From: Flammeovirgaceae bacterium
GTDB taxonomy: Bacteria; Bacteroidota; Bacteroidia; Cytophagales; Cyclobacteriaceae
Length of the DNA: 49,560 nucleotides
Reading direction: 5' to 3'
Assembly: GCA_021298015.1 (NCBI GenBank)
Contig: JAJTGY010000031.1
Coordinates: 1 to 49,560, forward strand
Within the stretch, counting starts at the first letter, position 1. Every line of letters begins with the position of its first letter. A program made the translations under genes and the position numbers. Below the pieces are notes generated by a model. The model was not told where the DNA came from, made no database searches, and worked only from the letters and a program-made list of their open reading frames with translations. Shown here piece after piece: positions 17,352 through 49,560 of this stretch.

Positions 17352-17897
17352 ATGATGGAGAAAACGCTGGCCGAATATAGAGAGGTGATGCGCACCTGCC
17401 AAACCTTATTTGCCAACAAAACGCGCGACTACGGAACTGCCTGGCGCGTGCTGCGCTTGTCCTCCATCACCGATCAGATTTTTATTAAAGCGCAGCGCAT
17501 TCGCAGCATTCAGGAGAAAGGCGTTCAGAAGGTGGCCGATCCGGTAAAAGATGAGTTTATCGGCATCATCAACTACTGCCTGATTGCCCTCATCCAGATC
17601 AAACTGGAGGGTAAGACCACGCTGGAGATGACCTATGAGGAGCTGAAACCCCTGTATGAGCAAGCCGTTGACGAAACCATCGCGCTGCTGCAAAATAAGA
17701 ATCACGACTATGGCGAAGCGTGGCGCGACATGCGGGTGAGCTCCATTACGGACATCATCTTAATGAAGTTGTTGCGCGTGAAACAAATTGAAAATAATGA
17801 AGGCAAAACACTGGTGAGTGAAGGCGTGAAAGCTAATTATCAGGATATGATTAACTACGCGGTGTTTGCCATGATTAAATTGAACGAGAAGGGATGA
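17352..17897 (+). CDS. DUF1599 domain protein with internal duplication
   Basis: A 181-residue protein made of two similar halves. NKTRDYGTAWRVLRLSSITD (residues about 22-41) and NKNHDYGEAWRDMRVSSITD (about 114-133) are clearly duplicated, each followed by a helix rich in Lys/Arg and a YxxMINY/FIGIINY-type segment. DUF1599 has no assigned function. Start at the ATG pair 17352/17355. The stop overlaps the next gene by ATGA. TATTTTG just upstream (within folP) could be part of its promoter. Confidence 0.88.
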   Translation: MMEKTLAEYREVMRTCQTLFANKTRDYGTAWRVLRLSSITDQIFIKAQRIRSIQEKGVQKVADPVKDEFIGIINYCLIALIQIKLEGKTTLEMTYEELKPLYEQAVDETIALLQNKNHDYGEAWRDMRVSSITDIILMKLLRVKQIENNEGKTLVSEGVKANYQDMINYAVFAMIKLNEKG

Positions 17898-19006
17898 AAA
17901 AATTCGTTGATCCGATTGCCCGTGTATTGATTGGCGGGCTATTCATTTTCTCAGGCCTGATCAAGCTGAACGATCCGGTAGGTACGCAGATCAAGATGGA
18001 GGAGTACTTTGAGGTATTTGCTCAGGACTTTGGGAACCTGTTTCATTACTTCATACCGGCTGCGCTGCCGATCGGGCTCGTGTTGATTGTCCTGGAGATT
18101 GTGTTGGGCGTGGCCGTGTTGTTGTTCTACCGCATGCGCATCACCCTGTGGGTGATGCTGTTGCTGCTGGTGTTTTTCACCTTCCTGACTTTCTACTCGG
18201 CTTACTTTAACAAAGTGACCGATTGCGGATGTTTTGGAGATGCCATCAAGTTGACGCCCTGGGAGTCGTTTTACAAAGATGTCTTTCTCATGGTTTTTGT
18301 GCTGCACCTGTTCTGGTACCGGGGTAGCTATAAGCCGGCAGTTTCGGAGCGCACCGGCTATTCGGTAACAGTGGCTACCGCGTTGATCAGTCTCTTCCTG
18401 GGCATCTATGCCATTTGGCACTTGCCCTTTATCGATTTCAGGGCTTACCGCGTGGGGAATAACATTCCAGCCCAGATGCAGCCCGCAGAGCAGCCCATTA
18501 TTGAGTATGTTTTTGAGAAAGCGGGTCAAGAAGTGACGTCCGCCAGTTTTATTACCGACAGCACGTACCGGTACAAGTCCAGCCGTGTGGTGAACGAAGA
18601 TCGCGTTCGCCCCAAGATCACCGACTATGCCGTGTCAGATGAAAACGGTGGCGACATCACGCAGGCAACCTTTGAAGGCAACAAGCTGTTGTTGGTCATG
18701 TACGACATCACGAAAACCTCGGTGGCCCATATCGATGAAATCCGGGAGTTAACCAAAGCCCTTGATGGCCAGGTGGACTGCCTCATTCTGACCTCTTCCT
18801 CGGCTGCACAAGTAGATGAATTTCGCCATACCCACCAGTTGGCCGTACCCTTTGCGTTTGCCGATGCCACTGTCCTAAAAACCATTATCCGGTCGAACCC
18901 GGGCCTGGCGTTGTGGAAGAATGGTACGGTGCTGGCGAATTGGCATCATAATGACACTCCGGGTAAAGCCGAGGTATTGGAGCGGCTGGTGCAGTCGACA
19001 CACTAA
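17894..19006 (+). CDS. BT_3928-like DoxX/MauE-type membrane protein with thioredoxin-like tail
   Basis: A 370-residue protein. The N-terminal half has about five membrane helices with DoxX-like features (VLIGGLFIFSGLIKLNDP) and a conserved DCGCFGD motif. The C-terminal 130 residues resemble a thioredoxin-fold domain (KLLLVMYDITKT, then PFAFADATVLKTIIRSNPGLALWKNG), but the CxxC site is absent. Redox partner or respiratory role is an inference. Translationally coupled to the DUF1599 gene, a common Bacteroidota pairing. Confidence 0.82.
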   Translation: MKKFVDPIARVLIGGLFIFSGLIKLNDPVGTQIKMEEYFEVFAQDFGNLFHYFIPAALPIGLVLIVLEIVLGVAVLLFYRMRITLWVMLLLLVFFTFLTFYSAYFNKVTDCGCFGDAIKLTPWESFYKDVFLMVFVLHLFWYRGSYKPAVSERTGYSVTVATALISLFLGIYAIWHLPFIDFRAYRVGNNIPAQMQPAEQPIIEYVFEKAGQEVTSASFITDSTYRYKSSRVVNEDRVRPKITDYAVSDENGGDITQATFEGNKLLLVMYDITKTSVAHIDEIRELTKALDGQVDCLILTSSSAAQVDEFRHTHQLAVPFAFADATVLKTIIRSNPGLALWKNGTVLANWHHNDTPGKAEVLERLVQSTH

Positions 19007-19044
19007 TTCGAAAGGGTGATGCACGTTTGGAGGTTTTGCGTGTC

Positions 19045-19548
19045 ATGAAAAAAATATTCCTGATCGGTTTGCCGGGTTCGGGTAAGACTACGCTGGGGCG
19101 GCAATTGGCCGATCACCTGGGGCTGCCGTTTGTCGATCTCGACAAAGAAGTGGAGAAGCACGAGGGAAAGCTGATAAGTGAAATTTTTCAGCAGCAAGGC
19201 GAAAACCATTTTCGATTGGCAGAGAGGAGCGTATTGCGCAACGCTTGTGAACTGCCCACGGGTTTTGTGATGGCGACCGGAGGCGGGGCACCTTGTTTTT
19301 TCGACAACATGCACGTGATGAACGCAGCCGGGGTAACGCTTTTTCTGGATGTGCCCGCGCGCATTATTCGGGAGCGACTAGAGCGCGGCAACCTGAACAA
19401 GCGCCCACTGTTTGCCGGCCTGACACCCGATGCATTAAAAGACAAGATTGAGTTTTTGCGAACGCACCGGCTGCCGTTTTACCGGTTGGCCCGCGTGTCG
19501 GTGACGGATGCACAGGTTACCGCGGCCCAACTGGCCAACCTGGTCTGA
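19045..19548 (+). CDS. aroK: Shikimate kinase
   Basis: A 167-residue P-loop kinase: Walker A GLPGSGKTT, shikimate-binding DLDKEVEKHEG, GGGAP turn, lid NKRPLF, and RLPFYRLA near the C-terminus. It phosphorylates shikimate in the chorismate pathway. Start ATG 19045 (MKKIFLIG) is chosen over an upstream TTG. It ends directly against the convergent porin gene (stop codons adjacent at 19548/19549) with no room for a terminator between them. Confidence 0.96.
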   Translation: MKKIFLIGLPGSGKTTLGRQLADHLGLPFVDLDKEVEKHEGKLISEIFQQQGENHFRLAERSVLRNACELPTGFVMATGGGAPCFFDNMHVMNAAGVTLFLDVPARIIRERLERGNLNKRPLFAGLTPDALKDKIEFLRTHRLPFYRLARVSVTDAQVTAAQLANLV

Positions 19549-21066
19549 TCAAAAGGTATAGCCGACTGTTACCATTACTTGTGTGCCACTCTGGCCAATG
19601 GTTGCCAGTGGATTGGTGGGCAGATTGACCGTATACGGTCGATAACCGAAACTTTGTTGACTGAAGACGGCAGCCAGATCCACATACACCGGAGACGATC
19701 GGTAGCCTATACCACCTGTAAATCCCGTTCTTTTTTGATTGATGCCGTTTTGCTCGTTTCGATACGGGTCAGGCATGTAAAAGTAGCCGGCACGAAACCG
19801 GAATTTTTCGTGGCGGAACTCGCCCCCCGCACGGATGGTAGTGGTCGACTGGTATGCGTTTCTAATATCTTCGTTGTCGGCCGAAAAATCAACGCCCAGC
19901 GTATTGGAACTGTATTTGGCTTTGGCAAAGTTCACCTGCTCAACATCGACCGTCACAAAACCGGACTTGCCAATGAAGAAGCTGCTGCCCACGCGAAGCC
20001 GCCAGGGCGATTGAAGACTATAGTCGGTAAAAATCGGGTCGAGTTCAGAAGATTCATCATTGAGGAAAAGGTTCGGAAGATATTCGAAGTTCTTCCATTG
20101 GCTGAACATGCTGGCATTGTAGTTCTCGCTGAGGGAATACCAGGTAGGTGTGGAAAGGGAAAGGCCAACCTGGATAAAGTCCACCGGCCGGGCAATGGCC
20201 CCGAAATTAATGTTCACTCCGCTGCCGCGGATATCCAGGTTCTCGCGAAGCTCGAAGAAACTGAGGGGTTCGTTCACAAAGTCCTCACGAAAAGTTTTTT
20301 GGCTTTCGTAGGTAAGGGAGACAATGCCAAGCGACCCACCCAGAAACACCCGATCCTTCACGTTCACGCCATACCCGAACGACCATTGATTTTGACCGCC
20401 CTGCGTTTGAATTTCTTCCTCTTGTAATGGAATGCTTAACACATCTGTGAAGTAATCGGTATCGGGTCCGGGGGGGCTCAAGATCGAGGCTTCGCCAATG
20501 AGGTAGTTATCGTATGCCAAACGTGTTAACGAGTTTGAATTGTCGCGCACGCCAGCGGGCACGGGAAAGGAGAACTGGGTTGGCGGCTGGCCCGTGGCAT
20601 CTTCAATGAAGTAGTCAATTAATGAACTATTGGAATTTTGGCCGCTGTATACCATCCGGCTGTTGAAATCATTGAGGCGCGTGAAAGAAACACCGAATGT
20701 TCCGCTAACTACTGCGCCTTGCTTGGATGACGAAAAGGCTAATCCAAAGGAAGGAATGTTAACGCGGGACCGATTGGTTTGCGTCCGATTGTCGAAATAT
20801 TCCGCAGTGTTTTGGGTTGCCAGGGTGCCCAATGTCAGCGCCACTTCTGACCGGTTGTACATGCCGAGGCCGGCCGGATTCGAAGCCGCCAGGCTGATAT
20901 CTCCGCCCAGACTGATCTGTGCACCACCCATGGCCTGAATTCGTGCCGTACCTCCAGGCATGGTGCGGCTAAACAGCAACGCAGTCTCTGCATAACTCTG
21001 TGCGCGAGCCACTTCCCCTACGCACAAAATAATCCCACTGAGCCAGAGGCCCGTAATAATTTTCAT
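19549..21066 (-). CDS. OmpP1/FadL-family outer membrane protein
   Basis: A 505-residue secreted protein with a signal peptide ending near ARAQ. The N-terminus of the mature protein carries the family feature GGTARIQAMGGAQISLGGDISLAASNPAG (given in parts), similar to FadL NPAxxG motifs. Many amphipathic beta strands follow, ending in the aromatic C-terminus VTVGYTF used for barrel assembly. Likely a hydrophobic-compound transporter in the outer membrane. It starts 14 nt after the upstream Gly/Trp-rich gene. Confidence 0.88.
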   Translation of the reverse strand: MKIITGLWLSGIILCVGEVARAQSYAETALLFSRTMPGGTARIQAMGGAQISLGGDISLAASNPAGLGMYNRSEVALTLGTLATQNTAEYFDNRTQTNRSRVNIPSFGLAFSSSKQGAVVSGTFGVSFTRLNDFNSRMVYSGQNSNSSLIDYFIEDATGQPPTQFSFPVPAGVRDNSNSLTRLAYDNYLIGEASILSPPGPDTDYFTDVLSIPLQEEEIQTQGGQNQWSFGYGVNVKDRVFLGGSLGIVSLTYESQKTFREDFVNEPLSFFELRENLDIRGSGVNINFGAIARPVDFIQVGLSLSTPTWYSLSENYNASMFSQWKNFEYLPNLFLNDESSELDPIFTDYSLQSPWRLRVGSSFFIGKSGFVTVDVEQVNFAKAKYSSNTLGVDFSADNEDIRNAYQSTTTIRAGGEFRHEKFRFRAGYFYMPDPYRNEQNGINQKRTGFTGGIGYRSSPVYVDLAAVFSQQSFGYRPYTVNLPTNPLATIGQSGTQVMVTVGYTF

Positions 21067-40011: not shown

Positions 40012-41320
40012 GTTACGCATTTCCCGGCTAGCCATTCTCCTGATTTTCGTCTGCCTGGTTGTGTGCATTCAATATGGAATGTCGCGCGAGCAGAGCATGT
40101 TATTGACCACGGCTTATGTTGTTCTGTTCGCGCTGTATGTTTGGATCGTTCGGTCAGCAACTCCAACCGAAGGGCGTTTTTGGATAACCGGAGCGTTGCT
40201 GGCACGCATTGCTCTGCTGGCGGCTGTTCCCAATTTATCCGAGGACGTCTATCGCTACATCTGGGATGGTCGCGTGTGGCAAAGTGGCGGAAATGCCTTT
40301 GCTTTGGTGCCAGCCGATGCCAAGCAATTGAACATCCCCGGCTTAGACGAGGCGCTATTCAACCAGCTCAATAGCCCCGAGTACTTTTCGGTGTACCCAC
40401 CCGTTTCTCAATTCTTGTTTTGGCTGATCACCTGCCTGTCACCCGATTCGGTTATGGGGAGTATTATCGTTTTGCGTCTGCTGGTGATTGCCGTTGAAGC
40501 GGGGACCATCGTCTTGCTGATTCGTTTACTGAACGGGAGCGGCCGGCCGGCCACATCGGCACTCTGGTATGCGTTGAATCCGCTCGTCATTCTTGAGCTA
40601 TCGGGCAATGTGCATCTTGAGGCGTTCATGATCTTCTTTATGCTTCTGGCTATTTATCTTCTTTTCAAAAGGCGAACAGCATGGAGTGCAGTCGCGTGGG
40701 TTGCCTCGATAGGGATTAAGTTGATGCCGATCCTGTTGTTACCGGCATTGATTTCACTCGTTGGCCGTTGGCGGTCGATTCGCCTGTATGCACTGGTGGC
40801 GGCCGGGTTGTGTTTGTTGTGTATTCCGGTGTTTGGGTCAGATGGGGGCATGGCGAAAGGCGTGGGGTTGTTCATTCAAAAATTTGAGTTCAATGCGAGC
40901 ATCTATTATCTCGTGCGGGAATTTGGCTGGTGGAAGTACGGATACAACACGATTGCCGAAACCGGATGGAAGTTGACACTCGTTGCCGGCCTTTTGATTT
41001 TGTTCTACAGTTTTCTTCCCTACGCGCGTGTGGGTAACCTGATCGAACGATTGGCAGGGCGCGGGATGAACGTCTTGTTCATTTTTTTTCTGTTTGCCAC
41101 CACCGTGCACCCGTGGTACTCGACCACACTCCTGGCATTGTGCACACTTACCGTCTTGAGGTATCCTGTGGCGTGGTCAGCCGTTATTTTTCTAACCTAC
41201 ACAGGTTATTCCACAGCAGGCTATGTAGAACAACCTGCGCTTGTGCTGTTGGAGTATGGTGTGGTGATCGGGTATGTTTTGTTTGAGGCTATGATTAGGC
41301 CAAGACTTCCCCACCTTTGA
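40004..41320 (+). CDS. Polytopic membrane glycosyltransferase (mannosyltransferase-like, GT-C)
   Basis: A 438-residue protein with about 11-12 membrane helices. The first periplasmic loop carries LSEDVYRYIWDGRVW, a GT-C type acidic catalytic motif typical of polyprenyl-phosphate mannose-dependent transferases. FSVYPPVSQF follows. The last 10 codons (AMIRPRLPHL) differ from the ending of the duplicated 3' copy at 47326-47490 (GTVREAKPKSEFYE), so the original C-terminus may have been replaced when the accessory region formed. Last gene of the redox-GT operon. Confidence 0.82.
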   Translation: MPELRISRLAILLIFVCLVVCIQYGMSREQSMLLTTAYVVLFALYVWIVRSATPTEGRFWITGALLARIALLAAVPNLSEDVYRYIWDGRVWQSGGNAFALVPADAKQLNIPGLDEALFNQLNSPEYFSVYPPVSQFLFWLITCLSPDSVMGSIIVLRLLVIAVEAGTIVLLIRLLNGSGRPATSALWYALNPLVILELSGNVHLEAFMIFFMLLAIYLLFKRRTAWSAVAWVASIGIKLMPILLLPALISLVGRWRSIRLYALVAAGLCLLCIPVFGSDGGMAKGVGLFIQKFEFNASIYYLVREFGWWKYGYNTIAETGWKLTLVAGLLILFYSFLPYARVGNLIERLAGRGMNVLFIFFLFATTVHPWYSTTLLALCTLTVLRYPVAWSAVIFLTYTGYSTAGYVEQPALVLLEYGVVIGYVLFEAMIRPRLPHL

Positions 41321-41334
41321 GCAACACTTAGCGT

Positions 41335-41418
41335 GACCGTTGTATTAAAACTCCAACAATTGTGTGCGGTGAGGCGGGTTAATGTGAAGAAGTTTATGTC
41401 AAAAACTCCGGTTGGTGG
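41335..41418 (-). other. Relic segment similar to DNA downstream of the barrel gene at 44599
   Basis: Positions about 41365-41430 align with about 44545-44610 (shared GAGGCGGGTT, then a similar TGAA..TCAAAA-type run). In the latter it is the 5' part of a truncated lipoprotein copy. Here it is cut off toward the glycosyltransferase end. It suggests a fifth, almost deleted unit of the array. No coding function. Confidence 0.45.
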
Positions 41419-42143
41419 TCATGGTCTATCGGAGTTCTTTTTTCTTGAATTGGAAAAGCGGTAACCCGCGGTTAAAAACCAATACGAAGTCAAAGTATCA
41501 AAGTCGTAGAAGGTTCCAAAAAACTCAATTGGCCGCGTTCGTGAGTGAATCCCTCCCGACTGAAACCGCAAACCCAACGAGAATCTATTCTTGACAATAT
41601 CAGCACCAACGGTTGGAGTGATAACCAGCGGGCGTAGGGTGTTCCTGAGGTTTGCAGCAACCTCCTGTGCCCCAGCACAATTAGTGCATTGCAAATAGTA
41701 GTCATCCTCTGCGGCAATTGGTACGTTAACACTTAAACCTGCGCTCCATTCAATGCTCAATTTCTGGCTTTTAAACTTCACCAACAGGGGAAACTCGATA
41801 TTGCGGTAGACCCGGCTGGCCAGTTGATAGCGAATTGGGTTTCTGACCGTATTATTAAATGTTTCCACGGACAGTCCATCCTGAAAGTAATTAAGCCCCG
41901 ATTGAAATGATAAACGATTGGTCAATTTGGTGGATAAGGTGACACTCAAAATCAAATACGTTTTGCCGGGGGGGGGCCTACATTAACCGTAATACTGTCG
42001 CAAACGGCAACGCCCGAACTTTGACTTTTTTGATAGAACCCGAATGAAAGTCCCCACTCAACGCGTTGCCCAAGCGAGGGCAAAGCCGACTCTAAAACAA
42101 GAAGAATGATGAATTGGGCTTTTAGTAGAGTGAGGACTTTCAT
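41419..42143 (-). pseudogene. Outer-membrane beta-barrel protein, unit 4, frame broken at a C9 tract
   Basis: The first part (42143 to about 41970) encodes signal peptide MKVLTLLKAQFIILLVLESA and a mature start RVEWGLSFGFYQKSQ, then CDSITVNVGPPP. The rest (from about 41967 to 41419) is in another frame: LILSVTLSTKLTNRLSFQSGLNYF ... CTNCAG ... WFLTAGYRFSNSRKKNS. The break is at a run of nine G (41968-41976; C9 in coding sense). Ten or seven C would join both parts into about 240 codons, the length of the intact sister genes. It is the last barrel of the array. Confidence 0.8.
41968..41976 (-). repeat. Homopolymer C9 (coding sense) that breaks barrel unit 4
   Basis: Nine G on the plus strand. 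Changing the length by +1 or -2 restores the reading frame. Candidate slipped-strand phase-variation site; a base-calling undercount cannot be excluded. Confidence 0.6.
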
Positions 42144-42160
42144 GGTGAATCTTTTACGCC

Positions 42161-42289
42161 CTAATTTCGCTGGTGAACGAAAAATGACATTCTTTGTCCG
42201 GGTGCGTATTCTGTTCCTTCGCCATCCGTGTTATCACAGTAACTAACGAAGTGTTCGGCCAAGTCATAGTCTTCATTGAGTTTTGTCAC
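42161..42289 (-). pseudogene. Lipoprotein C-terminal remnant of about 42 codons
   Basis: The reading frame VTKLNEDYDLAEHFVSYCDN then TDGEGTEYAPGQRMSFFVHQRN and stop lines up with the very end of the full lipoprotein (FTITTEDDLLGEAVVEYCDK ... YSTGKIYFNVKER). Upstream in frame is a stop and no proper start, so only the last part of the domain is left. It lies between barrel genes at 42332 and 41419, keeping the alternating order. Confidence 0.75.
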
Positions 42290-42331
42290 GCTTCATGATA
42301 GTATGGAGCACGAATGTGGATGATGAGAAAT

Positions 42332-43057
42332 TCATGGGTTGGCGTGACGATTTTTTTTTCCATGCAGGCTAAAAAAATGATAGTTCAATGAAAATGTTGA
42401 GTATCTGCAATCCACATTGAATTCATGTATTGAGTTGTTAAAAGTGATTTTCTGTGTCAAACTGTTTGAAAAAAGCTGTTGAATTCTGAAATCCAACGAC
42501 ACGCGCTTGTACTTCACACCAAGTCCATAACTGCCAAAAATCACGAAGTTTCGATAGGCGTCATCAATCTGATTAACAATTTCGGCTACTCCGGGGTGTT
42601 TATTGCCAAAAGAAACGTCTACACTTTCGCTGGGCCGGAACTTTGTGTTGATCTGTAGGCTTGGACCAGCGAAAATGTAAAGATCGATTTTTTTATATGT
42701 AACCAGCCTCAACCTTGGCAAGATGACGAGTTCGAACGTGTTGGTAGCCAGTGAAGCACCTTTCTTAACAGGACAAAAAGTACATTGCTCAGCTTGATTG
42801 AATACTAAAAACCCTAAGAACTGCTGCCTATACAGCAGGGAGTTTCGTAAAGACAGATGTTTCGAGAATGAGATTTCATAAAAGAACCCCAGAAAAGCCT
42901 CACGGTTTGGAGTTGTCGGATCATGTATTACGACAACATCACCCGCCACAGCTCCACCGGTTATTTTAGGAGCATAAACTCCGACACTTGGACCAAATGA
43001 TTGCTTTTGCCCTATTAGTGTACTTGGTAGAGCGAGGGAAAAAGCAGATAAAAGCAT
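42332..43057 (-). CDS. Outer-membrane beta-barrel protein, unit 3 (intact)
   Basis: A 241-residue secreted protein with signal peptide MLLSAFSLALPSTLIGQ (start ATG 43057; an in-frame ATG at 43105 would add 16 residues and overlap the upstream gene). Mature features shared with the barrel at 44599: SFGPSVGVYAPKITGGAVAGDV, AEQCTFCPVKKG, and SFGNKHPGVAEIVNQI. Predicted amphipathic strands suggest a small barrel of about eight strands. Function unknown. The start codon and the G-run ahead of it are inside a perfect 12-bp hairpin (43054-43080). Confidence 0.75.
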   Translation of the reverse strand: MLLSAFSLALPSTLIGQKQSFGPSVGVYAPKITGGAVAGDVVVIHDPTTPNREAFLGFFYEISFSKHLSLRNSLLYRQQFLGFLVFNQAEQCTFCPVKKGASLATNTFELVILPRLRLVTYKKIDLYIFAGPSLQINTKFRPSESVDVSFGNKHPGVAEIVNQIDDAYRNFVIFGSYGLGVKYKRVSLDFRIQQLFSNSLTQKITFNNSIHEFNVDCRYSTFSLNYHFFSLHGKKNRHANP

Positions 43058-43080
43058 AAGCCCCCTAAGGGGGCTTATGC
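43054..43080 (-). promoter_or_regulatory. Perfect 12-bp hairpin covering the start of barrel unit 3
   Basis: GCATAAGCCCCC pairs exactly with GGGGGCTTATGC around a 3-nt loop. On the minus strand the G-run would be the ribosome-binding region and the ATG (43057-43055) closes the stem, so translation could be masked. There is no T-run, arguing against a plain terminator. If translation starts at 43105 instead, the hairpin lies in the signal peptide codons. Confidence 0.6.
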
Positions 43081-43088
43081 CGGGTGTT

Positions 43089-43454
43089 TTAGCGTTCTTT
43101 AACATTGAAATTGACCCTTCCCGTGCTGTATTCATAACCTTCGTTGTTAGCCTTGTCACAATATGCAACAATTGATTCTCCCAACAAATCATCGCCATCG
43201 GTGATGGTGAAAGACAACTGACTTGTCACCGTGCTACTCGTTCCACCGCTATTATCGAATTTCGAACTGAAACTCGTGCTGTAGGTAGTTGTGGTTCCTG
43301 GATCTTTTTCAACCCAGAAATAATGCATCGCATTGCCATAAACCGATTTGTCCCACGTTACAATTTCGGTATTTATCGACTTCCATGCAGGTTTACAAGA
43401 AAAAACCAAGTTTAATTTGAAGACTTCATTTTTTGGGGCTAATGTGATAAGCAA
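43089..43454 (-). CDS. Orphan lipoprotein C-terminal domain (5'-truncated copy)
   Basis: The frame encodes about 121 residues. From FSCKPAWKSINTEIVTWDK onward it matches the C-terminus of the full lipoprotein at 45337 closely (NAMHYFWVEKDPG, DDLLGESIVAYCDKANNEGYEYSTG, FNVKER at the very end). No signal peptide or lipobox is present, and its first codons overlap the end of the upstream barrel gene. It may be a silent cassette or a decayed copy. A start at 43454 is only formal. Confidence 0.65.
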   Translation of the reverse strand: MLITLAPKNEVFKLNLVFSCKPAWKSINTEIVTWDKSVYGNAMHYFWVEKDPGTTTTYSTSFSSKFDNSGGTSSTVTSQLSFTITDGDDLLGESIVAYCDKANNEGYEYSTGRVNFNVKER

Positions 43455-44180
43455 TCGTCAACATAGAAGAGGTCTGGTTCGTGCCAAAGGGATAGCGCTG
43501 CCCCCATACCGAGATATCACTGGTAATTGTACGCGAGATATTGGCAGCCACCCTGCCGATTACGGATATGCGCCAAACTTTTATTTGTACGCCTAGTGCA
43601 TAACTGCATGTAAACGGTTTAATTGAATTGTCTTCGATAGCTTTTAAGACATCGAACACACCCGGGTGGAGCCCGAATGATGGTGAATACTCGTATGACT
43701 GGCCATTTTTCAAGTTCATTTCCAAGTTTATGCCCACCAATATGCCTATATCAACAGTATTCTTTTTTAAAGGTAAAATGAATTGAAGGCTAATTGGCAA
43801 CTCAAACGTTCGATATGAAACGCCCCCGCCTTTACTAACCGGACATAGAGCGCAGGTAGCTTCAGCGTTATACGCCAACACCGATAGATCATTTCGGTAG
43901 GTATTGATTTCAACTCGAAAAGAGAAGTTACGTATTACGTCACGCTGAAAAAAAAGCCGAGGGATATCCAAGGACCACCGCCTCCGGATTGGTTTCGTAC
44001 AGAGATGCTGTCGCAATTGGCACCTCCTGCTTTTGTTAGATACTGTAAACCTAACTGCGGTCCAAAACTGGCCTGAGCAAAAAGGTTAGAGACTGAAATA
44101 AGGAGTATCAGTATGATTTCTAAATGCTTCGTTGTTGTAAAAAACTGGCGAGACGGAATACATCCGCCCCGCCAATACAT
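43426..44180 (-). pseudogene. Outer-membrane beta-barrel protein, unit 2, frame broken at a T8 tract
   Basis: The first frame (44180 to about 43955) encodes a hydrophobic signal (EIILILLISVSNLFAQ), then SFGPQLGLQYLTKAGGANCD and SGGGGPWISLGFFF. The second frame continues QRDVIRNFSFRVEINTYRND ... CALCPVSKGGG ... FGLHPGVFDVL ... SMLTIAYHISPKK. The junction is a run of eight T in coding sense (43955-43948); nine would restore one frame of about 250 codons. Family features match barrels at 42332 and 44599. Confidence 0.8.
43948..43955 (-). repeat. Homopolymer T8 (coding sense) that breaks barrel unit 2
   Basis: Eight A on the plus strand. One more base (or two fewer) joins the two halves of the barrel gene. 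Confidence 0.55.
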
Positions 44181-44182
44181 GA

Positions 44183-44602
44183 CTATTGTCTAATGTGGAA
44201 AAATACGTAACCAACTCCGGTAGTATACTGATATCCTCCATTGGTCGTCTTATCACAGTACTCCACGATCGCTTCTCCAAGGGCGTAGTCTTCATTACTT
44301 ATTGTCACTTTCACCTGTCCCGTTACGGATGTTTTTGTACCACCGGTTCCCTCATATTGGGTCGTCATAGATAATGATATCTCAACCGGATCACCACTAT
44401 CTTCCTCGTACTATGTATATTTCATCATGTTACCAAACGTTGATTTATCCCAATTCATAACTTCAGTTGGATAAAAGTCAACCCAAGTTGTCCAGCAGTT
44501 AAGCCCTAGCCAGTTGCAATTTTTGAATTTGTGTCGGGCATCACCTGCGCTGAGGCGGGTTGATTTGAAAAAAATACATTTCAAAACTTGCGCGGCTGTC
44601 AC
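44183..44602 (-). pseudogene. Lipoprotein C-terminal copy with in-frame TAG
   Basis: The frame reads KFKNCNWLGLNC ... VMNWDKSTFGNMMKYT, then TAG, then YEEDSGDPVEISLSMTTQYE ... ISNEDYALGEAIVEYCDKTT ... GYVFFHIRQ and stop. It is colinear with the full lipoprotein C-terminus; the TAG stands exactly where the conserved Trp of HYFWVEKDPG is expected (TGG to TAG). No signal peptide is present. It follows the intact barrel at 44599 with an overlap of 4 nt and precedes barrel unit 2 by 2 nt. Confidence 0.78.
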
Positions 44603-45333
44603 GATCTGTTGGAATTCTTTCTTCGGAATCCATAAAAATGATAACCAACTGAAATCAGGACAAAATTACTATTCACAATATGCGGGTATGAGTTTCCGTT
44701 GAGACTCAGGTTGTTCATCATTGAGGGCCCAGTCATATCCAACCAGCGCACGAGCGCAAATACCCGCGAATACCGAATTCCAAAACCGTAGGTTAAAAAC
44801 AACTGGTTAGACTTATACCCGTCCCAAAGTTGGTTGATCACTTCAGCTACACCCGGATGCTTGGAGCCAAAAGAAACCGGGGGCGGTTGCGCCCCCGGTT
44901 GATAATCATAACGGAAGTGAAAGCTTACACCACCATTAACAGATAGCGCCAATTTCCCAAGATGTATCAAATTCAGGTCCGCATTGGGGTAAAACTCGAT
45001 GATATTGATACCGAAACCTCCTTGTTTGCGTACGGGACAGAACTGACATTGCTCGGCAGCATTCCACACAGTAAAACTCGCAAATTGCTGGGTGTAGTTG
45101 ATCTGGCTGCTAACCGACAAATATTTGTTAACTCGATAGCTTATCCCCAGGCCGATCATGCGCTCACTGTCACCAGCATCCGGAGTCGTGGTTACCTGAA
45201 CATCGCCTGCTGTAGCGCTCCCCGCTACGGAGGGAATGTAGTTGCCAAGTATTGGCCCAAACGAGAGCCTTGGTGTTTGACACAGGCCCTCAAGCATGAA
45301 AAGTTGGACGACAAATGCAACTAACCACTTCAT
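44599..45333 (-). CDS. Outer-membrane beta-barrel protein, unit 1 (intact)
   Basis: A 244-residue secreted protein with signal peptide MKWLVAFVVQLFMLEGLCQ. Mature start RLSFGPILGNYIPSVAGS, the Cys loop AEQCQFCPVRKQGG, and SFGSKHPGVAEVINQL are shared with the sister barrel at 42332. Alternating aromatic strands end in VLISVGYHFYGF, a typical barrel C-terminal strand, although a short basic tail follows. It starts 3 nt after the stop of the full lipoprotein, so the two are probably one operon and may interact. Function unknown. Confidence 0.78.
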   Translation of the reverse strand: MKWLVAFVVQLFMLEGLCQTPRLSFGPILGNYIPSVAGSATAGDVQVTTTPDAGDSERMIGLGISYRVNKYLSVSSQINYTQQFASFTVWNAAEQCQFCPVRKQGGFGINIIEFYPNADLNLIHLGKLALSVNGGVSFHFRYDYQPGAQPPPVSFGSKHPGVAEVINQLWDGYKSNQLFLTYGFGIRYSRVFALVRWLDMTGPSMMNNLSLNGNSYPHIVNSNFVLISVGYHFYGFRRKNSNRS

Positions 45334-45336
45334 ATC

Positions 45337-46691
45337 TTATCTCTCTTTTACATTGAAATAAATTTTGCCTGTGCTATACTGATAACCTTCGTTGTTAGCC
45401 TTGTCACAATATTCTACAACTGCCTCCCCCAATAAATCATCTTCGGTTGTAATAGTAAAAGACAACGTGTTGGTTAAAGTTGATTTGGACCCGTCTGTAT
45501 TGTCAAACGTTGTACTAAAACTAGTGCTAAGAGTTGACTGGGTTCCCGGATCCTTTTCAACCCAGAAGTAGTGCATGGCATCACCATAAGTCTCTTTATC
45601 CCATGTGATAATCTCCAAATTGACGTTTTTCCAGGCAGGCTTACAGGTGAAGCCAGGGAACGGACAGTTCTTAAAATCTCGGTCGGGCCAGGAGATAAAC
45701 TTTGTAACCTTCGCCACCGCACCGTTTGGCCTTGCGAAAGTTACAGTAACTTCAATCTCTAGTCCTCCGTCAAACCATTGACTTGCAAAGTTGAAATCCC
45801 TGATCGAAGAAAATTTCATCCTTACCAATTCATCTTTGTTATTTCTCGTATCCCTATCACACGGCACCGGCCCGGAATTGAAGCCGCCACCGGAGGATCC
45901 ACCACCACTATAACACGAGTTAACCGCGGTGTAATAATCCGAACGGTAATAGTAGTTGTACTCGTCAGTGGAATAGATGGGCGTAAGGGTCATACAAACG
46001 ACATCGTCAAACATTTGCGCCCGTCCGCCACTGGCAGATTTACCGCTCTTTGCCGTGGCCATTACACGCTCATTTTCGCTGATAACAATCACCAGTTGGT
46101 CGGGTTCCTCGGTGGCGCTCAGCCGGTGCTCATTGCCTTCGGCATCAAAAGCTATTAATTCGTCACCTTCTTTTTCCGGCACATAGGCAACCAGCGGAAT
46201 CCGCGTGGCTGTATCCCAGTTCTCGATCGAGTCCTTCGCAAGCGATGGAATGGCAACCTGTAAAAGAGGGTGCAGCGTGCCGAGGGAATCCAGCAGACCG
46301 GGGGCGGTACCCACTCGCGAATCCGCACGCGCAGCGGGAAACAAAACCTCCGCTAACGTTTTTCCTGTAGCCTTACCTGCCGAAGAGGCTGATCGGCCAA
46401 TTTCCCGGTCTTTTTCAAATTGAAACAAAAAATTGTTGTCGCCATCAAATCGGTTTAATGTCCGGTCTTTTATAAAGTCTCTTACATTTTGGTCACTCAA
46501 AGATGCGGCAAGCGACTTCGCGAAATGCTGCGACAATTTGTCTTTGACGGTTGCCGATGGTACTGATTTTACGCTACGTTCCTCCAGCAGCGATTCATCG
46601 GTACAACCCAACACCAAAACAAAGAGAATGAGGGAGCTTATCGCTCCCGGGCGGAAAAGAGCCCACGGGGGGGGGATGATTTTTTTAACAT
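45337..46691 (-). CDS. Large lipoprotein at the head of the array (frame depends on a C9 tract)
   Basis: About 450 residues. A promoter-like TACTTTTA (46727-46720) precedes ATG 46691, whose frame (MLKKSS) runs into nine C and then stops early. With ten or seven C it would continue as PWALFRPGAISSLILFVLVLGC, a lipoprotein signal with lipobox LVLGC and mature Cys. The frame after the tract is open and reads TDESLLEERSVKSV ... HPLLQVAIPSLAKDS ... LIAFDAEGNEHRL, a layout that resembles DUF3103-type proteins (weak call), then a Gly/Ser linker and a C-terminal domain with WDKETYGDAMHYFWVEKDPG and EYCDKANNEGYQYSTG. As written the gene would be OFF unless it starts at a poor upstream ATG (46812). Copies of its C-terminus alternate with barrels downstream. 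Confidence 0.7.
46667..46675 (-). repeat. Homopolymer C9 (coding sense) in the signal-peptide region of the lipoprotein
   Basis: Nine G on the plus strand, seven codons after ATG 46691. At C9 the ATG frame ends 18 codons in; at C10 or C7 it joins the lipoprotein frame. Candidate phase-variation switch. Confidence 0.6.
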
Positions 46692-46719
46692 GGCATTTTG
46701 GTTTATGTGAAACATGGGA

Positions 46720-46746
46720 TAAAAGTAATACCCGCTGTTCTTCAAA
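46720..46746 (-). promoter_or_regulatory. Probable promoter of the lipoprotein/barrel array
   Basis: TTTG (46746-46743) and TACTTTTA (46727-46720) resemble the -33 and -7 elements, with a spacer of 15 nt that is shorter than usual. The leader to ATG 46691 would be about 25-30 nt. It supports ATG 46691 rather than 46812 as the start. Confidence 0.4.
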
Positions 46747-46759
46747 TGCCATTGAACTT

Positions 46760-47325
46760 TGCGTTAAATGGTACATCGCAAAGCAAGGGGTGTTAAGCAT
46801 TGCCGTCAACATTTTTAGGGTGTTTCGGGCATTGCCGCCCCTAATACCATAATTAAAATTTGAGGAATTCGACTATTCCTTACATGCCACTAAAGGCGAT
46901 GATTGAAAAATCTGACAGGGCGTATTGGCAGCATTGCCAGGATGACGAGCTCTCCTTACTTTTTGGAATACGCCACGCCTATCACTCCGCCTTCTGGTTT
47001 GCGAATTTCCCGAGGCGTGGTTCGGTGCTTTGCCTGCCTCGCACGCCTGTCGAGTTGTGCGCCAGCATTGGTGCGAGAGTTCACGAACAGATGATGTTAA
47101 GATGGATAACAGGCATATTCGCGAGTTTTGTTTTTATGAAGAAGGGAGATATTCTTTTGCTTTCCGGCAGTGTCTTGTTTTGGATTCCATGGGTAACTCA
47201 AGGTTTAAGAAAAAAACGAAAGAGATAAAGTATTGGCATTGCACCACGAGCAGTAAGTAAAAGCAGGGCAATCTCAGGCTTGTTAGTGAAACCGCCCGAT
47301 TTGTCTGCAAGCAACACCAAGAGCG
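46760..47325. other. Stretch without a convincing gene
   Basis: Short overlapping frames exist on both strands (for example 46860-47228 on plus), but none shows a recognisable domain, start context or codon pattern. The right part leads into the duplicated glycosyltransferase 3' end. Confidence 0.5.
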
Positions 47326-47490
47326 GTGGTGTGGTCAGCCGTTATTTTTCTAACCTACACGGGCTATTCCACAGCAGGCTATGTAGAACAACCTGCGCTT
47401 GTGCTGTTGGAGTATGGTGTGGTGATCGGGTATGTTTTGTTTGAGGGTACAGTCAGGGAGGCCAAACCCAAATCAGAGTTTTACGAGTGA
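47326..47490 (+). pseudogene. Duplicated 3' end of the membrane glycosyltransferase gene
   Basis: Positions 47326-47446 match 41168-41288 in all but three bases. The reading frame is the same (WSAVIFLTYTGYSTAGYVEQ, then VLFE) and continues as GTVREAKPKSEFYE with a stop at 47488-47490, whereas the full gene at 40004 ends AMIRPRLPHL. The fragment has no start. It marks the right border of the 41.3-47.3 kb accessory region and may be the original gene end. Confidence 0.9.
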
Positions 47491-47565
47491 AGTTTTGTTA
47501 ATCCATTGCTCCAATCGCCAGATCCGGGAGCACCAGCCCACTTTGTTTCACTGTTTGTTCTGTTC
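47446..47565. repeat. 120-bp direct repeat, copy 1
   Basis: It matches 49441-49560 with two mismatches. It begins at the point where similarity to the glycosyltransferase gene ends and includes the last 14 codons (GTVREAKPKSEFYE) plus downstream non-coding DNA. Confidence 0.95.
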
Positions 47566-49440: not shown

Positions 49441-49560
49441 GGTACTGTCAGGGAGGCCAAACCCAAATTAGAGTTTTACGAGTGAAGTTTTGTTAATCCA
49501 TTGCTCCAATCGCCAGATCCGGGAGCACCAGCCCACTTTGTTTCACTGTTTGTTCTGTTC
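49441..49560. repeat. 120-bp direct repeat, copy 2 (runs to the window edge)
   Basis: It matches 47446-47565 with two mismatches and reads GTVREAKPKLEFYE followed by a stop in the same phase. The repeat may continue beyond the window. Both copies are in the same orientation, about 2 kb apart. Confidence 0.95.

What the first reader, a model, noticed from the sequence alone, without database searches (positions are those of the whole stretch)
41335..46812. Array alternating outer-membrane barrels with truncated copies of one lipoprotein's C-terminal domain
Seen: in transcription order the region holds a full lipoprotein, barrel, C-terminal copy (stop-broken), barrel (shifted), C-terminal copy (open), barrel, 42-codon C-terminal remnant, barrel (shifted), and a further relic. 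The four barrels share clear motifs (SFGP.., CxxCPV loop, KHPGVAE in most), and the C-terminal copies share WDKxxxG and YCDK blocks. Known: polymorphic systems such as CDI and Maf keep orphan C-terminal modules, each with a partner gene, behind one complete gene. Inference: this may be a surface lipoprotein/barrel pair with a reservoir of silent C-terminal cassettes for gene conversion, or a tandem duplication decaying in the downstream direction. I know of no described system with this layout.
Basis: partly seen in the sequence, partly recalled or inferred. Interest (0 to 1): 0.82.

Follow-up and report, generated by a model that had tools for sequence, protein, structure and literature searches.

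The report
Phase-variable lipoprotein-barrel locus with orphan modules
A bacterium of the Cytophagales group carries a surface lipoprotein gene that a slippery DNA repeat at its start can probably switch on and off, and behind it lie the worn ends and partner barrel genes of earlier versions, a set-up like those some pathogens use to vary their surface.

Summary
The array is real: on the minus strand one complete lipoprotein gene and four outer-membrane barrel genes, with 5'-truncated copies of the lipoprotein's end between barrels. (1) A C9 tract lies between the lipoprotein's ATG and its signal peptide, and this ATG is out of frame across it; a second C9 breaks barrel 4. These are the only two G/C runs of nine or more in the 3.6-Mb assembly. 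In the family, 22 of 76 lipoproteins have a slippery repeat there, against 1 of 86 control lipoproteins; the units differ between lineages (C, G, AC, CTCTA, 7- and 8-mers). That is the signature of slipped-strand phase variation. (2) In Algoriphagus, modules of C-terminal domain plus barrel differ while the lipoprotein's front is kept, and at one orthologous locus new modules have pushed a truncated lipoprotein and its barrel downstream. The window's copies diverged under selection and its barrels are not one clade, so it is not simply a recent duplication decaying. Best reading: a phase-variable, module-exchanging lipoprotein-barrel locus with displaced orphan modules. Switching, surface display and the selecting agent are inferred.

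The parts
45337..46691 (-). Full-length lipoprotein gene; ATG 46689-46691, lipobox Cys codon 46603-46605; the ATG is out of frame with the rest across the C9 tract. An upstream ATG (46812) is in frame and open but would add about 70 residues before the signal peptide region.
   Evidence: N domain 4e-51, C domain 7e-58
46667..46675 (-). C9 tract between ATG and signal peptide of the lipoprotein
   Evidence: one of only two G/C runs of nine or more in the assembly
46057..46548 (-). N-terminal domain of the lipoprotein (weak DUF3103 match)
45346..45843 (-). C-terminal domain of the lipoprotein, predicted beta sandwich
44599..45333 (-). Barrel 1, intact; starts 3 nt after the lipoprotein stop; predicted 8-stranded barrel
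44186..44545 (-). C-copy 1, truncated lipoprotein end with an in-frame TAG
43426..44123 (-). Barrel 2, frame broken at a T8 tract (43948-43955); its likely start codon reads ACG
   Evidence: start codon by comparison with barrel 1, by eye
43089..43412 (-). C-copy 2, open, 69-72% identical in protein to the lipoprotein end
43054..43080 (.). 27-nt palindrome between C-copy 2 and the start of barrel 3
   Evidence: self match in opposite orientation
42332..43057 (-). Barrel 3, intact
42161..42295 (-). C-remnant 3 of about 42 codons
41419..42143 (-). Barrel 4, intact apart from a frame break at a C9 tract
41968..41976 (-). C9 tract in barrel 4, where its frame breaks
41365..41391 (-). Relic: 27 nt shared with the 3' flank of barrel 1
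41168..41291 (+). End of the GT87-like gene, left copy of a direct repeat that brackets the array
47326..47449 (+). Right copy (97% identical) of the GT87 gene end

Best explanation
This is a contingency locus for an outer-membrane lipoprotein and its partner barrel. The lipoprotein has a conserved N-terminal domain, usually a Gly-rich linker, and a variable C-terminal domain; the barrel gene follows directly. In the window and many relatives a slippery repeat between the ATG and the signal peptide can change length by slipped-strand mispairing, so translation of the lipoprotein (and, through close spacing, probably of the barrel) switches on and off. The C-terminal domain plus barrel behaves as a module that recombination replaces while the front half is kept. 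Incoming modules push the old one downstream, leaving a 5'-truncated lipoprotein piece and an orphan barrel. The window shows several rounds: one full gene with its barrel, then older modules in different states of wear. Shown: repeat enrichment and out-of-frame ATGs; N/C discordance between species; displacement at an orthologous locus; purifying selection on displaced barrels in Algoriphagus. Inferred: actual switching, surface exposure, docking of the C domain on its barrel, and phages or grazers as the selecting force.
For: Only two G/C runs of nine or more in the 3.6-Mb assembly, both here at frame breaks. Strict repeat test: 22 of 76 family lipoproteins against 1 of 86 control lipoproteins (Fisher p 2e-7) and 4 of 572 control ORFs; in 17 of the 22 I read the tract as between ATG and lipobox, nearest ATG out of frame in 12, in frame in 4, unclear in 1. 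Of the 22 loci with an adjacent barrel 12 have a repeat, of the other 54 lipoproteins 10. Front kept but C domain and barrel changed: L096/L098 0.94/0.54/0.52, L106/L118 0.94/0.50/0.67, with sharp drops in DNA identity around the linker. Displacement: A. marincola has lipoprotein-barrel; A. faecimaris at the same locus has lipoprotein-barrel-truncated lipoprotein-barrel-barrel, the truncated copy matching A. marincola's gene at 81% against 67% for the full gene, and the last barrel with its flank at 81.5% over 3.8 kb. Displaced barrels have dN/dS 0.11-0.19. Window copies diverged mainly at third positions and its barrels are not one clade.
Against: 54 of 76 family lipoproteins, among them 10 of the 22 with an adjacent barrel, show no such repeat, and tract lengths were compared between species only; no switching was seen. 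The rows are related (7 of the 17 coding tracts are Algoriphagus or Cognataquiflexum). Repeat thresholds were set after first sight; a lenient version gave 28 of 78 against 11 of 86 and 49 of 572. G/C runs of nine occur in 50 of 62 genomes of the genus, so the run itself is not rare. An upstream in-frame ATG exists in the window. The barrel correlates with the N domain as well as with the C domain (Mantel 0.86 and 0.81, partial 0.69 and 0.58), so C-barrel cognacy is not singled out. Some modules changed without a clear barrel change (L070/L098: C 0.87, barrel 0.62).
Confidence: 0.74

Rival explanations
1. A tandem duplication of C-end plus barrel in this lineage, now decaying without function.
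For: Copies are 5'-truncated and several are broken (TAG in C1, frame breaks in barrels 2 and 4, C3 a remnant). G055 has a barrel with at most a weak C-end trace before it (30 aa, E 0.015).
Against: Third-position excess between copies (lipC-C2 26/21/60 of 108; lipC-C1 47/39/74 of 106) and distances as large as between genera; barrels are one clade in 0% of 200 bootstrap trees, although barrel 4 has a long, unsure branch; barrels 1 and 3 are intact; relatives show displacement instead.
Confidence: 0.13
2. An active store of silent cassettes that rewrite the full gene by gene conversion, as in Borrelia vls or Treponema tprK.
For: A. faecimaris barrels 1 and 2 share a nearly identical 3' part behind a diverged 5' part; lipC and C2 of the window share a 31-nt identical run (column shuffle p 0.0002).
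Against: Window copies are only about 68-70% identical to the full gene; no strain comparison is at hand; the run lies in a conserved stretch, which the column shuffle ignores.
Confidence: 0.15
3. The C9 tracts are homopolymer miscalls of the assembly and the genes are simply intact.
For: Read data were not available; both C9 frames and the T8 frame in barrel 2 depart by a single step of tract length.
Against: T8 runs elsewhere in the window lie in intact genes; out-of-frame ATGs occur in 12 of 17 family tracts, including di-, penta-, hepta- and octanucleotide repeats that base callers do not favour.
Confidence: 0.08
4. A polymorphic toxin system (CDI, Rhs, Maf type) with orphan toxin-immunity pairs.
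For: Kept front, exchangeable end with a downstream partner, and orphan modules behind the main gene.
Against: The C domains found with barrels match one profile instead of unrelated toxin domains; apart from DUF3103 the Pfam matches of 29 members are single or weak (one single-member weak match is named bacteriocin-like), NCBIfam gives one match in 29, PADLOC none for 3 proteins; the partner is an outer-membrane barrel with a signal peptide.
Confidence: 0.03

Closest known systems
Helicobacter pylori babA/babB, sabA, hopZ outer-membrane proteins (PMC3960876, passages)
   Same: Slippery repeat in the 5' coding region that sets the frame, and recombination between related surface-protein genes
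   Different: Unrelated proteins; one polypeptide instead of a lipoprotein-barrel pair; no row of displaced modules behind one full gene; host-bound pathogen
Rhs main gene with orphan rhs-CT/rhsI modules (PMC3967940, passages)
   Same: Kept front, exchangeable C-terminal end with partner gene, displaced 5'-truncated ends downstream without start signals
   Different: No toxin or immunity protein found; the partner is an outer-membrane barrel; the main gene has a slippery repeat
Type B CTD proteins with PorP/SprF-like barrels in Bacteroidota (PMC9143113, abstract)
   Same: C-terminal domain of a surface protein paired with a barrel that it binds; 5 of 30 barrels match PorP_SprF weakly
   Different: Here a lipobox anchors the protein and no CTD family was matched; pairing here is inferred from gene order
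Bacteroides invertible surface loci (PMC11868660, 12 of 13 passages)
   Same: On/off variation of surface proteins in the same phylum
   Different: Works by DNA inversion; here by repeats in the coding region
Borrelia vls and Treponema tprK silent cassettes (vls: search listing; tprK recalled)
   Same: One complete gene with partial copies beside it
   Different: vls cassettes are about 90% identical to the expressed gene (abstract start), here about 70%; the copies here come with their own barrel genes

Membership tests
Slipped-strand phase-variable (contingency) gene | Simple repeat in the 5' coding or promoter region, beyond chance | tested here: met
   Window C9; family 22 of 76 against 1 of 86 and 4 of 572
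Slipped-strand phase-variable (contingency) gene | Tract length sets the reading frame; both states are found | tested here: met
   Nearest ATG out of frame in 12, in frame in 4, unclear in 1 of 17
Slipped-strand phase-variable (contingency) gene | Length varies between cells or isolates of one strain, reversibly | not testable with these tools
   Only between-species variation seen, e.g. (AC)13 and (AC)6 in G320 and G367, C11 and C10 in G353 and G557
CDI/Rhs/Maf polymorphic toxin systems | Kept N-terminal part, variable C-terminal module with partner, orphans downstream | tested here: met
CDI/Rhs/Maf polymorphic toxin systems | C-terminal toxin domain | tested here: not met
   C domains match one profile; no toxin family apart from one weak single-member match among 29
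CDI/Rhs/Maf polymorphic toxin systems | Partner is an immunity protein | tested here: not met
   Partner is a predicted outer-membrane barrel
vls/tprK-type silent cassettes | Donor cassettes highly similar to the expressed gene | tested here: not met
   C2 about 68-70% identical in DNA, C1 41% in protein
Pfam DUF3103 (PF11301) | Match above the curated cut-off | tested here: inconclusive
   Window 22.3 bits against a cut-off of 25; 26 of 29 members match at E<=0.1, best 1.7e-11
T9SS type B CTD / PorP-SprF pair | CTD signal on the cargo and a PorP/SprF family barrel | tested here: inconclusive
   No CTD family in NCBIfam at E<=0.01; PorP_SprF matches 5 of 30 barrels, best 3.7e-6

The most novel reading that the evidence does not exclude
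Free-living Cytophagales run a two-layer surface-variation system on one locus. Slippery repeats of many kinds flip a lipoprotein-barrel receptor on and off, while Rhs-like displacement keeps replacing its variable half together with its partner barrel. The orphan modules stay a usable store that recombination can reconnect to the switchable front, probably under phage or grazer pressure.
Probability: 0.35. Interest if true: 0.87.

Novelty: new variant of a known kind. Interest (0 to 1): 0.72.

Why it matters
On/off switching by repeats at a gene's start, combined with exchange of the variable half, is best known from host-bound pathogens such as Helicobacter; in the review passages I saw, Bacteroidota are named for DNA inversion. 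Here both appear in one family of lipoprotein-barrel pairs across Cytophagales, several of them cultured species, so the selecting force can hardly be a host's immune memory alone and may be phages or protist grazers. It can be tested at once in type strains, makes DUF3103-like lipoproteins candidates for variable surface receptors, and gives a case of Rhs-style orphan arrays without toxins.

Tried and rejected

Literature: searched for DUF3103 (0 papers) and for phase variation by homopolymers, simple repeats or slipped-strand mispairing with Bacteroidetes, Bacteroides, Cytophagales, Algoriphagus or Flavobacterium; no listed title or abstract start describes this locus. One listed paper (PMC3090145, one passage read) suggests slippage at a short C run in a Bacteroides fragilis polysaccharide gene, so the idea of slippage in the phylum is not new. 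Preprints and most subscription papers are not in that library.
Full report
What is there. On the minus strand of contig C102 (the window is G000:C102:1-49560; assembly 3,611,288 bp in 115 contigs) lie one complete lipoprotein gene and four barrel genes, with 5'-truncated pieces of the lipoprotein's C-terminal end between barrels. In the assembly the lipoprotein has 4 matches and barrel 1 has 3, all in this stretch. The C-copies begin inside the C-terminal domain, so none encodes a whole domain. Two 97% identical copies of the 124-nt end of a GT87-like gene bracket the array.

The pair is a family. The lipoprotein search found 17 of 146 genomes, the window's included; the barrel search 7 of 142; the lipoprotein profile 40 of 390 genomes of the order at E<=1e-8, 8 of 72 of the genus of G320 and 14 of 120 of the genus of G353. 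The distribution is patchy. A scan of named genomes gave 33 loci, among them Algoriphagus, Cognataquiflexum, Splendidivirga, Thermoflexibacter, Runella, Spirosoma and Pontibacter. I scanned 84 loci (10 duplicate contigs dropped; 81 N-domain genes, all distinct). In 22 loci N and C domains are followed within 400 nt by a barrel (one of them, G367, has a frameshifted front, and G177, whose lipoprotein has stops, is not counted). Extra barrels occur: two in G074, G272 and G367, three in G320 and G054, and in G035 one open frame with two barrel matches. G055 keeps a barrel with only a weak trace of a C-end before it (30 aa, E 0.015).

The slippery repeat. Between the window lipoprotein's ATG (46689-46691) and its signal peptide lies C9 (46667-46675), and this ATG is out of frame with the lipobox. 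A second C9 sits where the frame of barrel 4 breaks (41968-41976). A search of the assembly for nine Gs, both strands, found only these two places. If two such places fell at random, both would hit this 5.5-kb stretch about twice in a million (my arithmetic). Runs of nine occur in 50 of 62 genomes of the genus, so the run itself is not rare; its confinement to this locus is the point. Relatives carry other repeats at the same place: (AC)13 in A. faecimaris, (AC)6 in G367, (CA)14 in A. marincola, C13 in A. mannitolivorans, C9 in A. boritolerans, C7 in Cognataquiflexum, (ACAAAAAC)4 in A. marinus, C11 in G353, C10 in G557 and G195, G7 in G144 and G254, (CTCTA)7 in G156, (AAAACAC)5 in G013 of the window's own genus, (AAATTTCC)5 and (AAATTTCC)8 in two loci of G138. 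Strict test over 150 nt before the lipobox: 22 of 76 family lipoproteins (5 of 81 had no recognised lipobox) against 1 of 86 control lipoproteins and 4 of 572 control ORFs of the same loci. In 17 of the 22 I read the tract as lying between ATG and lipobox: nearest ATG out of frame in 12, in frame in 4 (L048, L098, L101, L118; for L048), unclear in L047. The other 5 are A, T or AT tracts, most of them upstream of the ATG. Repeats are commoner where a barrel is adjacent: 12 of 22 against 10 of 54 (Fisher p 0.004). Rows are not independent (7 of the 17 are Algoriphagus or Cognataquiflexum), but the differing units speak for several origins. Thresholds were set after first sight; the lenient first version gave 28 of 78, 11 of 86 and 49 of 572. 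Of 35 barrels only the window's barrel 4 has such a repeat near its start.

Module exchange. In A. faecimaris (L096) and G367 (L098) the lipoprotein's front is 94% identical in protein, the C domain 54% and the first barrel 52%. DNA identity falls from about 96% to 53-69% around the linker, while the last barrels are again 73-98%, mostly above 85%. L106/L118 show the same (0.94, 0.50, 0.67); L070/L098 the reverse (N 0.66, C 0.87, barrel 0.62). Within A. faecimaris, barrels 1 and 2 are 60-73% identical in their 5' part and mostly 92-100% in their 3' part, which looks like conversion or recombination between copies. Over 22 units the barrel tracks the N domain as well as the C domain (Mantel 0.86 and 0.81; partial 0.69 and 0.58), so C-barrel cognacy is not proven by this test.

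Displacement at one locus. A. marincola has one lipoprotein and one barrel. A. faecimaris, with matching flanks on both sides (the left one with about 3 kb extra), has lipoprotein, barrel, truncated lipoprotein (open, 319 aa, no signal peptide), barrel, barrel. The truncated copy matches A. marincola's gene at 81% over 713 nt, against 67% over 1,218 nt for the full gene; the third barrel with its 3' flank matches A. marincola's at 81.5% over 3.8 kb. The simplest history is insertion of new modules in front of the old one. The displaced barrels of A. faecimaris and G367 have dN/dS 0.19 and 0.11 against A. marincola's, so they are not dead.

The window in this light. lipC against C2 differs at 26/21/60 first/second/third codon positions of 108, lipC against C1 at 47/39/74 of 106. 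Pieces cut off and neutral from birth should not show this. Barrel 3 is closer to G055's barrel (0.44) than to barrel 1 (0.35), and the four barrels are one clade in 0% of 200 bootstrap trees, with barrel 4 on a long, unsure branch. So I read the array as modules that diverged as working genes and were later displaced and worn. Evidence for exchange within the window itself is thin: one 31-nt identical run between lipC and C2 in a conserved stretch.

Verdict. A phase-variable, module-exchanging lipoprotein-barrel locus with displaced orphan modules is the best reading (0.74). It works like H. pylori bab/sab genes in its repeat (PMC3960876, passages) and like Rhs orphan arrays in its layout (PMC3967940, passages), but it does not meet the defining features of the toxin systems.

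Noticed in passing
47446-47565, 49441-49560 (contig end), G000:C21:214-333 (L032): A 120-nt repeat (98% between the two window copies) occurs twice beyond the array and again near the start of contig C21, there joined to a diverged copy of the GT87 gene end; the contig probably breaks at this repeat.
   Followed up: partly
L102:9703-11724: Near the A. marinus pair a 674-aa open frame with an AHH nuclease domain (Pfam, above cut-off) has an (AAAACACA)5 repeat near its start; it may also be phase-variable.
   Followed up: partly
43054-43080: A 27-nt palindrome lies between C-copy 2 and the start codon of barrel 3, where it could shape expression of the barrel.
   Followed up: no
L035:4476-9326 (G054): Lipoprotein with three barrels downstream and, between the first two, a small lipoprotein with a weak lipocalin-like match; a T12 tract lies upstream of the lipoprotein's ATG.
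   Followed up: no
L061:5657-7963 and 17750-20000 (G085): Two copies of a gene beginning with the same residues lie about 12 kb apart in G085, with G8 tracts inside both repeated stretches; the weak barrel matches fall in them.
   Followed up: no
L043, L045, L046, L049, L088, L090: Family members with divergent C-terminal ends and no barrel match in the locus; in L045 and L049 the next gene codes for a small lipoprotein-like protein. The front half seems to be combined with more than one kind of partner.
   Followed up: partly
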